From: Cheilinus undulatus
Lineage: Eukaryota; Chordata; Actinopteri; Labriformes; Labridae
Direction of reading: 5' to 3'
DNA length: 64,000 nt
Assembly (NCBI RefSeq): GCF_018320785.1
Contig: NC_054867.1
Coordinates: forward strand, 54,291,776-54,355,775
Under the pieces are notes generated by a model, which ran no database searches, was not told where the DNA came from, and saw nothing but the letters and a program-made list of their open reading frames with translations. Positions 5,215-38,400 of this stretch are shown piece by piece. The translations under genes were made by a program, and so were the position numbers. How positions within the stretch are numbered: position 1 is the stretch's first letter; each line of letters opens with the position of its first letter.

Positions 5215-5402
5215 ATGGCCGACAGCAGCAGCCCCCCGCTGACGTCCTACATCATGGACGAGGAGACGCTGAAGAGGAAGCAGAAGGAGAAGCTGAAGAA
5301 GCTGATGGCTACAGGAGGAAACCCCAGACCTGCTCGCTCCCTGCTCTTCCTGACCCTGAGGAACCCCTTCAGGAAGGCCTGCATCAGCATCGTGGAGTGG
5401 AA
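5215..5402 (+). CDS. cacna1s: cacna1s exon 1: N-terminus
   Basis: ATG at 5215 opens the frame and the exon encodes about 63 residues, ending ACISIVEWK with a split Lys codon (phase 2, donor at 5403). The N-terminus is short and Lys-rich ([12 protein letters not shown]), followed by the conserved [18 protein letters not shown] that precedes IS1 in Cav1 channels. The start is supported by the 188-nt phase fit and by the absence of another Met in a better position. A second Met lies 13 residues in (MDEETLKRK). Confidence 0.92.
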
Positions 5403-8400
5403 GTATCCTCAGAGTCCATCTACAGTTATACATCTATGTATTTAAAACCTTTGATAGATCTATACATAGATCAGCTCTGAGTATCATTAGGGCACCCATG
5501 TCATGGAAGGAAACAAACAGGAAGTGAGTTATTTTTCCATACTAGGTGATTTAAACCAACATGTCAGAGGGGTTTCAGCCAATCAGCTCTTAATTAGCTC
5601 TTCTTACCGTCAACTTCTTACAGGTTAAAAGTCACAAAGAGATTTTGTGGTAAAAAGTAAAGGGTCAAAGTTTGGTGTGAATTCATGATTTTATGAAGGC
5701 AGATTCACTAAAAACAAAACACTTCAACCTCGACACAAACCCCAACAGGAAGTCAGACATTTTTATTTAATCTTCCAAATGATAAAGGGTCATTATTTCA
5801 ACCACCTACTCTGAGAGACTTGACCTGGTCTTACCGGTGTTCTAGTCCAGTGGTTCTCAAATGGTTCTCAAAGAGGCAAGTCTAGATGTGCCGTGGGAAC
5901 TTGTACAACCATACGTTGTAGCCTACTGTAACCAGGCCTGCCCACAGATCTGGGTGGAAAAACCCAAAGAATGGGCCCTCCCCAGTTGTGATTTATTGAT
6001 GATGTCAGTCTATGTGAGTTGGATTAGCATTGGTGCTAGCATCCTGGCTAACAGTTACCTCATTTAGAAGTGAAAAGCATGGCAAGCTAATTTTGTGATG
6101 ACTGGATTGGTTCTTTTGACAGCTAAAAGCATTTTGCTGCTTTTTTATGCTTTTTTTTTTACCATATTTGACCCAGTTTTGCTACTTTTTTTGAATGTTT
6201 TGCCACATTTAACCAATTTTTGCAACCTTTTTGGCCAATTTTGCTATTGTTTGTCCATTTTTTATTCTTCCTAATCACTTTTAACCCCTTTTTACCACCC
6301 TATTGTAACTTCAAACTTTTTTTTGCTACTTTTCTGCCACTTGTGGTCTATTTTGCCACCTTTTGGACACTTTCAACCCATTTATGCCACCTTTTCGCCA
6401 ATGTTCACCCACTTTTGCCCTTGCCTTCACACACTTTTCTGCCCAATTTTGTCCTTTTTTAAAAAATCACTTTTAACCCATTTTTACCCCCTTTTACAAC
6501 ATTTAACCCTTTAAAGCCACTTGTAATCACTTTTTGCCACTATTTTGAAACTTTCAACAAGTTTCTGCCAATTTTAACCCATTGTTTGGCCACTTTTTTT
6601 TTTTCTTTTTACCAATTTTTGCCCACTTTTGCCCAATTTTACCATCTCCATGATCCCCCAGTTGGCTGGGCCCTGAAAGCTCTCCCCTTATAGGCCACCT
6701 TGACTGTAACATTTTTTAAATAGTCTATTTTGTATCGATTTAAATATGGCGTACCTTGACATTTTGCCTTAACCTTAGGTGTGCCCTGGGCGAAAAAAGT
6801 TTGAAAACCACTGTTCTAGTCTACTTACCTGTATTAGCCTTTAGCGCTTCCATGCTAGCCATGCTACTTTCCTATTACTCCTGTTCAGACCTTTTGAAAT
6901 CATCATCCTGTTAGCCATCTTTGCTAACTGTGTTGCTCTGGCTGTTTATCTACCGATGCCTGAAGAAGACAGCAACAACACCAACAGTAACCTGGTCTGT
7001 CTGTCCGTCTGTATGTCTGTGTGTCTGTATGTCTGTGTGTCTGTGTGTCTGTATGTCTGTGTGTCTGTATGTCTGTGTGTCTGTGTGTCTGTATGTCTGT
7101 GTGTCTGTGTGTCTGTATGTCTGTGTGTCTGTATGTCTGTATGTCTGTGTGTCTGTCCATCTGTATGTCTGTGTGTCTGTGTGTCTGTATGTCTGTGTGT
7201 CTGTATGTCTGTATGTCTGTGTGTCTGTATGTCTGTGTGTCTGTATGTCTGTGTGTCTGTATGTCTGTATGTCTGTGTGTCTGTCCATCTGTATGTCTGT
7301 GTGTCTGTATGTCTGTATGTCTGTGTGTCTGTATGTCTGTGTGTCTGTATGTCTGTATGTCTGTCCGTCTGTGTGTCTGTGTGTCTGTGTGTCTGTATGT
7401 CTGTGTGTCTGTGTGTCTGTGTGTCTGTATGTCTGTGTGTCTGTCCATCTGTATGTCTGTGTGTCTGTATGTCTGTGTGTCTGTATGTCTGTATGTCTGT
7501 GTGTCTGTATGTCTGTGTGTCTGTATGTCTGTCCATCTGTATGTCTGTGTGTCTGTATGTCTGTATGTCTGTGTGTCTGTCTCTTATATTATTTTCTTTT
7601 CATACTTTTAAACAAAGACAGATGTCAGCAGAGGAAGGCACGGTAAATCAGAAATGTAGCCTTATCAACCATTAATCTCTGTATAGACTCATTAGTTAAC
7701 AGTGATGCTTTATTTCTGCGTAAAACCCCTGAATGTTAACATTTAACAGGAATTACGTCACCTTCTTTAGGTGATTGACTTTTTCACATTAAAAGCCTCC
7801 TGATTAAACTTCACTGTCCAATTATTAGCTGGTCTCTGAAGTCCAAGAGGCCTTATGTTGTGGAGTTAACTGAATTTAACAGAAGTTGAAGGTTTGGATG
7901 TTGACTTTATAATCTAACATGTTAACCCAGGTCTGGATCCTGATCATCAGTCTGTAACATTCGGTCCTGATGTCATTATCACATATTCTATTGCATCTCT
8001 ATGTATTGTCATTATGATATAGTTTTGATGCGTATAATACATTTTCATATTTATTTTATAGTAAAATGATTTCATTTTTTCTATAAAAAAAAATGTAATG
8101 TAATTGTGATAATTATATCATGATTACATTACATACATGAAAACTACGTGTCATTTTTTCCATTATGACACAGTGACTGTTTAATAATTATGTTGTCACT
8201 GAACCATAATGGAACCGTTTCAATGTCATAATAACATTATTCTAATTCAACAGTCACTAATGACATTTAATGATATTAACATAGTAACAATGATCAGTAG
8301 AGGTGCTGGTGTCCTGGTGTTAGGATCCTCTGATTGTTCTGTTTTTACAGCATGTTTTCACTCTAAATGAGTAAACTTGTAACATGAAAGTGTGACAGAG

Positions 8401-35400: not shown

Positions 35401-38400
35401 GGACTAGATCTGGATTAAAACTATGTAAAATACTTTATTTTTATAACTATAGAGTTTAAATAAGGAATAGAATACTGCTCCTGGTGTTTGTTTTCCTGTG
35501 AGAGGTAAATGAGTTTTACTCAGGGACAATGTCAGGGTAAGGTTCAGGCTGGATCAAGCAAAGACCCTGTTCCTTCAAAACTGATCCAGGTCCTGTCAGA
35601 GTCAGAGCTGATGTTGGGGTGAAGAAATAACCAACATGTTTTTCAGTTATCAGGTTTATGAGAATCACTCAGACACCAGGCCCCCAACATGTCCACAACC
35701 GGGGTTATCACCATTAAAGATACAACGTGTTAAAGGAAAAGAATGTTAGAAAACACAGAAACTCTCCAGCAGGATGCCAAAAGGCCCACAGCCTGGGTTA
35801 TAACTGCTGAAGAGAAGATACAAAGTAAAAGAAAAATAGAATGTTAGAAACCAATAAAGACCCGTGAGCTTTGACCTCTGATCACCAGTGAAGACCCAGT
35901 GAAGACCTGTGACACAGAACATATTAGGTAAGATGCCAACATCACCATGGCTGGGGTTATCACCTGTGAAGATATAAAAAAAAATATTAGAGGAATAGAA
36001 TGTAAGAAACACAGAATGTGCCCACTAAGATGCCAACATGCCCATGGCTGGGTTTATCCCCAGTGAAGACAAAAACTGTGAGAGGAAAGAATGTTAGAAA
36101 CACAAAACCTCTTCAATACGACGCCAACATGATACTAGCTGGGCTCATCACCAGTGAAGATCAAAATTGATAGAGGAAAAGAATGTGAGAAACAGAGCAA
36201 ATCAACCAAGATGCCAACATGCTCACAGCCAGGGTTATCACCTGTATCAGATCAAAATGGTTGGAGAAGAATGTTAGAAACACAGAACATCTCCACCAAG
36301 ATTCCAAGATGCCTGTGGCTGGGGTTATCTCCAGTCAACGTAAAAAAATGTTAGAGGAAATGAATGTATGAAATACAGAATGTCTCCAGCAAGACGCCAA
36401 GATGTCCATGGCTATTGTTATCGCCAGAGAAATCAAAAACTGTGAGAGGAAGGAATGTTAGAAACACAGAATGTCTTCACCAAGAAGCCAACATGCCACG
36501 AGCTGGTGTTATCAGCAATGAAGATCAAAATTGATAGAGGAAAAGAATGTTAGAAACACAGAATATCTCTAGCAGGATGCCAACATGTACATGGCCAAGT
36601 TTATCACCAGTTGGGGTAAAATGTACGAGAAAATGAATGTTAGAAACACAGAATGTGTCCACCAAGATACCTGCATGCCCGTGGACAGGGTTATCAACAG
36701 TCAATGATTAGAATTGATGGAGGAAAAGAATGTTAGAAACATAAAAAGACAGTTAATTTGGTTTACCTTTACAAATGCAAAAGTAAAATTTTTGCTCTAA
36801 AAACCTGCATAGTAAGAGTAAAAAGCAATTAATTTAAACTTCACAGTACTGAGCAGGTATTTTTAATCCCACATGGGTTTTTACAGTCAAATCTGATTTT
36901 TCTTTGAACAGTATGAAGAGAATATAAATGTCTAATCAGGTTTGATGTTATAGGCTGTTACTAAACCTAATGTTGATTTATAGTGGTGGCTCATTGCTGT
37001 CAGAAAGAAGAAGCAGTAGAAACATGAATGAGATGCAGCAACAGAACCGCAGCTTCCTGTTGATGTTCATGATTCTTTATGGAGCAGTCTTTGGTGTTTG
37101 TACTAACATGGTGGTCCTGTTAAAACTATTGAAGTAAAAGTTTTAAGGAGAAGATGTTGGTCCGCTAGGTTAGTCCTTCTAATGACTCTAAAATTCTACG
37201 TACTGTCCCTTTACTCTCGCTGTGGATCATGTCACAGAGGCAGGGCAGTCTGTTTGGGAACTCTGAGCCGTTCACTGGAGACACCAACCAGAGGCCCCTG
37301 CAGATGAACGAGGGAAACCCCAACAACACAGCACACCAGGACAGGTACGACAGTGGGATATAGAGCTCAGCAGAGATGATCCTGCAGTAGAACCCTAACG
37401 TTCTCCATGGTGGATCTGACTATTCACCGTGATGTCATAACTATCTAACCACTAGATGGCAGTATCTGCTCCTGTAGGAGACTCAAGACTAGATATCAAC
37501 TTGGTTAAATTCAAATATGGTTTATTTATGAGCTCAAGGAATAGAACTACATTACCCACAATCCTAGAGTCCCAGGGGTGTCTCTGATTGATGATACATT
37601 GATATGATTAGCACCTAATGGACAGTTTTAAAGACCATAACAGAGACATAGGAGCACCAATCAGACTCCAGCATCATTAAACCTCTACAGTAAGAGTACC
37701 GCTAAAGAGATCTAGACCTCCATTAATCTGGTGTCACTGGAAAAACTAACACTGGTAATGAATGATAGACTCAAGCTGGATTATGGGAAGTGTAGTTCCC
37801 TGATTTCTACAGTCTGGTCCCTCTGTCTCTGTTATTTAATAGTTTGTTTCTGGACTGATTCAGATGTTTACCTATTAATACTCCGGTCTCTGATTGGTTC
37901 AGGTCAAGGATTCTAAACACTGATAAAGGATTTCATGAATCCTGATTGGAGGATAAGAGTGGGGGTTAAGCTACAGAAACCAGACATTATGACAAGGTGG
38001 GCAGGCTCTGTTCAGCTCTTTTTATAACTTTTTTTATTTCTATCCTTCTAGTCTTTTCTGATGCCTGAAGACTTTTGACCTCTGATCACCTGTGACTTTT
38101 GACCCCTCATCCCAAATGAAGACCTGTGACACTTTACCTCTGATTACCAATGAAAACCTGTGACCTTTGACCTCAGCAGACCCAAAAAAATCACCAAAAT
38201 GTTCTTCAGTTATCATCTTTATGAGAATCACCCAGACAGACACCAAGATGCCAACAAAAGAATGATAGAAACACAGAACATCTCAACCAAGATGCTAAGA
38301 TGGCCATGGCTGGGGTTATCGGCAGTGAAGACAAAGTATGTAAGAAGAAAAGAATGTTACAAACTCAGAATGAATTCACAAGACACTAAGATGCCCACGA

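What the first reader, a model, noticed from the sequence alone, without database searches (positions are those of the whole stretch)
5215..37344. General pattern: minisatellites seeded at splice junctions across one gene
At least eight cacna1s introns (after exons 2, 5, 12, 25, 26, 29, 34 and 36, plus acceptors of exons 6 and 25) have arrays that begin at the donor or copy an exon border. Random seeding in introns would not favour the first few bases. Either exon-intron borders are prone to duplication here, or selection removes arrays elsewhere. I know of no named process that explains it.
Basis: partly seen in the sequence, partly recalled or inferred. Interest (0 to 1): 0.75.

Follow-up and report, generated by a model that had tools for sequence, protein, structure and literature searches.

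The report
Tandem repeats copying splice borders
In one fish calcium-channel gene, several exon ends together with their splice sites have been copied head-to-tail into repeat arrays inside the introns, a pattern that has been described in lancelets under the name 'mirages'.

Summary
With 39 exons placed, 7 of the 13 large tandem arrays in the gene start between 28 bp before and 25 bp after a splice donor. Depending on the null, 1.0 to 2.65 are expected (P 5e-6 to 0.003; threshold chosen after looking). Acceptors show no excess (1 of 13). Introns 5, 11, 24 and 25 carry a copy of their own exon's end (rank 1 of 38, z 3.9-5.7). At exon 6 the acceptor plus about 36 coding bases is copied; a two-copy acceptor duplication precedes exon 24. 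Another donor-spanning array lies in a presumed MS4A-like gene about 16 kb before the window.

The phenomenon has a name: 'mirages', minisatellites spanning exon-intron borders in amphioxus (PMC3087553). The best explanation needs no border-targeting process: random tandem duplication in short introns often crosses a border, and donor-crossing copies can be tolerated because the original site stays on its exon. Donor-spanning arrays alone are not in excess (3 versus 1.27). The excess did not repeat in a second array-rich gene (0 of 8), and genome-wide donor-word counts were inconsistent. A moderate unexplained donor-side bias remains.

The parts
10263..10676 (+). Donor-spanning array (mirage) of exon 5: unit = last 28 bp of exon 5 + donor CAG|GTGAGC + intron head; 60/72 bp; first three copies identical over 60 bp
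   Evidence: 5 decoy donors as strong as the true one at +60, +120, +180, +252, +312; read-through stop 11 nt into intron
11398..11702 (+). Acceptor-spanning array of exon 6: 92-bp unit = intron tail + GCAG + about the first 36 bp of exon 6; two decoy acceptors before the real one (exon starts 11667)
   Evidence: (exon-start copy rank 1 of 38, z 5.8)
19469..20793 (+). Donor-spanning array of exon 11: 38-bp unit = last 23 bp of exon + donor + 15 bp intron, about 35 copies
   Evidence: z 4.6; 27 junctions read (A/T)GGTAGGA; by the gene's own matrix no decoy scores as high as the true donor, two exceed the gene's median
26867..27172 (+). Donor-spanning array of exon 24: ~16-bp subunits from AACCAG|GTGAGACAAG, amplified as a 63-bp higher unit in which one of four subunits keeps GT (by eye)
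   Evidence: z 3.9; 5 decoys equal to the true donor
27445..27978 (+). Array in intron 25 (27445-27932, 32-bp unit, starts +25 from donor) followed at 27933-27978 by a copy of exon 25's end and donor (GT kept, CAG changed to CAA)
   Evidence: (23 of 27 aligned exon-end bases match, z 5.1)
6998..7580 (+). Array beginning 3 bp after the donor of exon 2 (TGTCTGTA units); no exon copy detected
   Evidence: z 0.5
28964..30401 (+). Array beginning 17 bp after the donor of exon 28 (18-bp unit); no clear exon copy
   Evidence: z 1.5
33061..33402 (+). Array beginning 19 bp after the donor of exon 32 (41-bp unit); no clear exon copy
   Evidence: z 1.3
26612..26687 (+). Two-copy duplication (26612-26642, 26657-26687) spanning the acceptor of exon 24, which starts at 26677
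8800..9626 (+). Array ending 47 bp before the acceptor of exon 3 (20-bp unit); counted with the non-border arrays
5215..37344 (+). Host gene: L-type calcium channel alpha-1 (cacna1s-like), 39 exons placed; at least one exon between 12880 and 17189 not found

Best explanation
These are mirage-type minisatellites plus ordinary intronic ones. In a repeat-rich stretch of a fish chromosome, short segments are duplicated head-to-tail at random. In short introns such a duplication often starts close to, or crosses, an exon border. If it crosses a donor, the first donor stays attached to the real exon and the copies fall into the intron, so the message can remain normal (inferred). If it crosses an acceptor, the extra upstream acceptor is more likely to be used, so these survive less often (inferred). 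Duplications wholly inside exons are removed (none seen; selection inferred). Survivors then grow by unequal exchange or conversion (inferred), which can draw in the coding end itself: in exon 5, 28 coding bases are part of three identical 60-bp copies (shown). Splicing must pick the exon-attached site, in introns 5 and 24 among five decoys of equal or higher score, because read-through meets a stop after 11, 21 and 33 nt in introns 5, 11 and 24 (shown by sequence; use of the first site is inferred).
For: Border copies in introns 5 (both ends), 11, 24, 25; a further donor-spanning array in a presumed MS4A-like gene with 8 donors of equal score, the first one included; no duplication in exon interiors, 0/108; reading frame intact over the placed exons, 0 stops in 369 + 1219 codons; donor-spanning 3 and acceptor-spanning 1 of 13 against 1.27 each under random seeding; arrays are regional: 22,916 bp of 40 kb at C9:555-595 kb against 687 of 60 kb, 198 of 50 kb, 107 of 40 kb and 0 of 10 kb in four other channel-gene regions; mirages with normal splicing described in amphioxus.
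Against: Random seeding still under-predicts arrays starting within 25 bp of a donor (7 seen; 1.0-2.65 expected; P 5e-6 to 0.003), mainly through introns 2, 25, 28 and 32. No transcripts were available, so use of the first donor is not shown. Only one haplotype and one genome were seen.
Confidence: 0.66

Rival explanations
1. Splice donors are true hot spots: something about the border (nucleosome edge, transcription pausing, R-loops, donor sequence itself) makes tandem duplication start there.
For: 7 of 13 starts within 25 bp against at most 2.65 expected; donor side 7/38 versus acceptor side 1/37 at 25 bp into the intron; CAGGTGAG in spaced triplets 6427 per 68,654 single words against 1069 per 28,790 for the reversed word.
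Against: 0 of 8 in a second array-rich gene; AAGGTAAG, also a strong donor word, gives 698 per 38,256 while its reversed word gives 7837 per 55,724, so word counts show no consistent donor effect; the gene was singled out because it showed the pattern.
Confidence: 0.2
2. The arrays are kept because extra donors help: back-up or regulatory decoy sites, or in-frame alternative donors as in human IFI6.
For: 5, 5 and 7 decoys scoring at least as high as the first donor in introns 5 and 24 and in the MS4A-like array.
Against: Read-through stop codons after 11, 21 and 33 nt in introns 5, 11, 24 and 12 nt past the MS4A-like donor (open frame ends VSSY-stop), so decoy use truncates the protein; three of four subunits in intron 24 have lost the GT (by eye); in introns 11 and 25 no decoy scores as high as the true donor.
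Confidence: 0.06
3. The host gene is decaying and the arrays are tolerated because it no longer matters.
For: Exon 4 lacks about 28 residues of segment S3 and the S3-S4 loop present in the guide protein and in the paralogue at C11; at least one exon between 12880 and 17189 was not found.
Against: Exons 1-8 read through 369 codons and exons 9-39 through 1219 codons in one frame without a stop; matched blocks are mostly 60-100% identical to the guide, a few 42-50%.
Confidence: 0.05

Closest known systems
Mirage minisatellites of amphioxus (Adh3, globins, TnC, imperfectly PGBD5)
   Same: Tandem repeats that span an exon-intron border, units of minisatellite size, many copies with splice signals, both 5' and 3' borders affected (PMC3087553 section 16 read; PMC3902484 one passage; the original Adh3 paper is not held)
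   Different: Fish host; four donor-side and two acceptor-side border copies in one gene; about 35 copies at exon 11; normal splicing not shown here
Human IFI6 (6-16/G1P3) minisatellite with several splice donors (Turri et al. 1995)
   Same: Minisatellite at a 5' splice site whose repeats carry donors (passage and reference in PMC4526556; original not held)
   Different: There extra repeat donors are used, giving three mRNAs; here read-through past the true donor meets stops in introns 5, 11 and 24
Internal tandem repeats at exon-intron boundaries in human segmental duplications
   Same: Minisatellite expansion at gene borders alters exon-intron structure (PMC2812944 passages)
   Different: There novel introns can form; here the one border checked (end of exon 5) lies at the same residue as in two paralogues, so that intron is old and has only grown
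Intronic minisatellites of fish genes, e.g. gilthead seabream growth hormone introns
   Same: Polymorphic minisatellites in teleost introns (PMC3045353 passages)
   Different: No border copying is mentioned in the passages seen

Membership tests
mirage minisatellite | Tandem repeat spans an exon-intron border (contains coding end plus splice site) | tested here: met
   Introns 5 (both ends), 11, 24; presumed MS4A-like array. Intron 25 has the border copy at the far end of the array. Introns 2, 28, 32: not met
mirage minisatellite | Units of minisatellite size | tested here: met
   38, 53, 60-72, 63, 92 bp
mirage minisatellite | Copies keep AG/GT splice signals, many but not all | tested here: met
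   5, 5 and 7 full-strength decoys in introns 5, 24 and the MS4A-like array; most subunits in intron 24 have lost GT (by eye)
mirage minisatellite | Regular splicing of the mRNA is undisturbed | not testable with these tools
   No RNA data
mirage minisatellite | Length instability between haplotypes or tissues | not testable with these tools
   One assembly only
IFI6-type minisatellite with used alternative donors | Repeat donors can be used in frame | tested here: not met
   Stops 11, 21, 33 nt past the true donor in introns 5, 11, 24
Intron gain from tandem duplication (proto-splice site model) | The intron is new, absent from relatives | tested here: not met
   Exon 5 ends at the same residue in the window and in paralogues A and K (guide residues 231-232); the other array introns were not checked one by one

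The most novel reading that the evidence does not exclude
In repeat-rich chromosome stretches of this fish, splice donors act as preferred seeds for minisatellites, so that introns grow from their 5' end by border-anchored tandem duplication, and the splicing machinery routinely selects the exon-attached donor among many equal decoys.
Probability: 0.2. Interest if true: 0.75.

Novelty: new member of a known kind. Interest (0 to 1): 0.5.

Why it matters
The papers seen describe mirages in lancelets and suggest a general phenomenon of cephalochordates. Four donor-side and two acceptor-side border copies in one fish gene, and one donor-side array next door, would extend them to a fish. They offer natural tests of how a spliceosome chooses among identical donors 60 bp apart, and of intron growth by border duplication.

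Tried and rejected
Genome-wide word test: spaced triplets of donor 8-mers against the reversed word. CAGGTGAG 6427 triplets per 68,654 singles, control 1069 per 28,790. AAGGTAAG 698 per 38,256, control 7837 per 55,724. The ratio depends on the word more than on donor identity, and large arrays count many times, so it neither supports nor refutes. CAGGTAAG singles 36,034; its triplets did not complete.

Second array-rich gene (sodium channel, C9:555-595 kb): of 14 arrays (13, one of which splits into two around an exon), 8 lie in introns between placed exons (the start of the first intron is approximate); 0 of these 8 start within 25 bp of a donor, 1 ends 19 bp before an acceptor. Six were left out: one before the first placed exon, one (33909) after an exon whose end is uncertain, four beyond it. 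Array-poor channel regions (A, B, C, H) and the Cav1 paralogue K have few arrays; their arrays were not tested against exact borders.

Uniform-placement nulls with several constraint assumptions were computed. The 25-bp threshold was chosen after seeing the distances; at 50 bp P is 4e-4 to 0.018. Weak exon-copy scores in introns 1 and 16 (donor side, both rank 1, z 2.7 and 2.5) and 29 (acceptor side, rank 1, z 2.9) were treated as chance among 76 tests. The fixed-phase copy statistics for intron 11 lost register after the second copy and were not used; a first attempt found few copies; counts come. In one search scores were rounded, which hid equal decoys in introns 5 and 24; one search corrects this. 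One search stopped on one wrong motif and was mended. One search, protein 2, was a partly garbled typed peptide and its result is ignored.

Papers: mirage searches list 5 and 3 papers, of which two, both on lancelets, concern splice borders; searches with fish or teleost terms listed 8 papers and none, with no mirage-like case in the titles and abstract starts listed. Only the held library was searched, by words. PMC2891723 was seen as outline and abstract only.
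Full report
What was checked. The window lies at G000:C3:54291776-54355775, 2.8 Mb from the end of a 57.17 Mb contig of a 1.17 Gb genome. Exons were found with a recalled Cav1.1-like guide and fixed at AG/GT borders: 39 exons from 5215 to 37344. Exons 1-8 read through 369 codons and exons 9-39 through 1219 codons, each in one frame without a stop. The two frames do not join, and guide residues are missing there, so the stretch 12881-17188 should hold at least one exon that I did not find. One exon searched against the PDB hits L-type channels 1S, 1C and 1D about equally; the cacna1s label rests on the guide comparison.

Arrays against borders. With period >=7, score >=100 and length >=100 bp there are 13 arrays in the gene. 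Distances from donor to array start are 3, 1805, -28, 1107, 747, -23, 805, -12, 25, 17, 19, 103 and 582; distances from array end to acceptor are 2093, 47, 990, -36, 3339, 422, 373, 88, 136, 291, 261, 100 and 496. Seven of 13 start within 25 bp of, or across, a donor; one of 13 ends within 25 bp of, or across, an acceptor. If each array is placed at random in its own intron with the arrays collapsed, 1.01 are expected (P 4.8e-6). If duplications crossing borders are also allowed, 1.93 (P 6e-4). If donor-crossing is allowed and 35 nt at the acceptor are protected, 2.65 (P 0.003). The 25-bp limit was set after looking; at 50 bp P is 4e-4 to 0.018. Introns are short: 24 of 38 are 77-401 bp.

A profile that does not use TRF asks whether a 30-mer has a near copy within 1.5 kb. 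Exon interiors: 0 of 108. Donor-centred: 2 of 38. At 25 bp into the intron: 7 of 38 on the donor side and 1 of 37 on the acceptor side. Intron interiors: 438 of 1509. So borders are not richer in array sequence than intron interiors; what is special is that arrays begin at the donor side, and not the acceptor side.

Exon copies. The last 30 bases of each upstream exon were aligned to its own intron and ranked against all 38 exon ends. Introns 5, 11, 24 and 25 give rank 1 with z 5.7, 4.6, 3.9 and 5.1. In intron 25 the copy (23 of 27 aligned exon bases; GT kept, CAG changed to CAA) sits at 27933-27978, just after the 32-bp array, as if a border-crossing duplication came first and a shorter unit grew inside it. 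Introns 2, 28 and 32 show none. On the acceptor side intron 5 / exon 6 gives z 5.8, with about 36 coding bases in the unit, and exon 24 has a two-copy duplication. Introns 1 and 16 (donor side) and 29 (acceptor side) also reach rank 1 with z 2.5-2.9 and are treated as chance among 76 tests.

Anatomy. In intron 5 the first three copies, the real exon end included, are identical over 60 bp. Decoy donors scoring at least as high as the true one by a matrix from the gene's own 39 donors: five in intron 5, five in intron 24, none in intron 11 and none in intron 25. Read-through past the true donor meets a stop after 11, 21 and 33 nt in introns 5, 11 and 24, and after 198 nt in intron 25, so a normal protein requires the exon-attached donor in the first three. 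This is inference from sequence; no RNA was available.

Other genes. The 30 kb before the window hold presumed MS4A-like exons (CD20 family, E 0.0034, below the curated cut-off, for one exon; none for two others tested). One of them ends inside a 53-bp x 7.8 array, about 16 kb before the window, whose unit is 31 bp matching the exon end (with a 3-base indel) and 22 bp of intron beginning GTGAGTTC; all 8 donors score the same. Across the window and seven other stretches (324 kb), 3 of 49 arrays contain at least two donor-like 8-mers; all three lie at donors (two of this gene, one of the MS4A-like exon), the words mainly or only on the sense strand. In the window a leucine-rich-repeat gene on the minus strand has an array edge 36 bp after a donor. 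A sodium-channel gene at C9:555-595 kb is even richer in arrays, yet 0 of 8 placed intron arrays start within 25 bp of a donor. Four other channel-gene regions are nearly array-free; a Cav1 paralogue 1.9 Mb from the end of C11 has only a few short arrays, so closeness to a chromosome end alone does not explain the density.

Genome-wide. Letters for a full test were not available. Counts of spaced donor-word triplets gave opposite answers for two donor words. Generality is therefore open.

Interpretation. Minisatellite-like tandem duplications spanning exon-intron borders are known in amphioxus as mirages; there the data suggest that they do not disturb splicing, and their origin is called unclear (section 16 of PMC3087553; passage of PMC3902484). 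A human minisatellite with several splice donors is known in IFI6 (passage in PMC4526556). The arrays of introns 5, 11 and 24, the exon 6 acceptor array and the MS4A-like array meet the testable features of mirages. Donor-spanning arrays by themselves (3 of 13) are not significantly above what random seeding gives (1.27, P 0.12). The remaining excess comes from arrays that start just inside the intron. I favour random duplication filtered by splicing, with a modest chance of a real donor-side bias.

Noticed in passing
window 9814-10060: Exon 4 lacks about 28 residues of domain I S3 and the S3-S4 loop that the guide protein and the C11 paralogue have; an acceptor TTTATGTAG keeps the frame. Possible gene decay, divergence or assembly fault.
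   Followed up: partly
window 12881-17188: At least one exon (I-II linker region) could not be found although the frame requires it.
   Followed up: partly
window 35930-36741 and 38256-38979: The same ~91-bp unit (by eye) forms arrays on both sides of exon 39.
   Followed up: no
L025:614-4818 and L025:5840-8772: In the sodium-channel gene closely similar 21-bp units (around CCAGGTCAGAGA) fill two introns separated by two exons and a short intron.
   Followed up: partly
L024:4928-7347: Array of polypyrimidine-AG units (CCCTCTCTCTAG) that ends 19 bp before a sodium-channel acceptor, resembling a repeated acceptor tract.
   Followed up: partly
window 46134-47785, 57685-58526; L024:20-1918: A ~46-bp minisatellite unit occurs in both orientations in the window and on another chromosome (seen by eye), so some arrays belong to a dispersed family.
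   Followed up: no
window 40646-41731: Array edge 36 bp after a donor (41767) of a minus-strand leucine-rich-repeat gene at 41.7-45.3 kb (LRR hits, donor; opticin-like by eye).
   Followed up: partly
window 1738-1896; L033:3610-3900: Paralogous MS4A-like exons (by eye); only the upstream copy carries the donor-spanning array, so the array arose after the duplication or was lost in the other copy.
   Followed up: partly
L027:3850-3910 (about C9:588,850-588,910): The sodium-channel gene seems to break off after domain IV S6, with an array following; possibly truncated.
   Followed up: no
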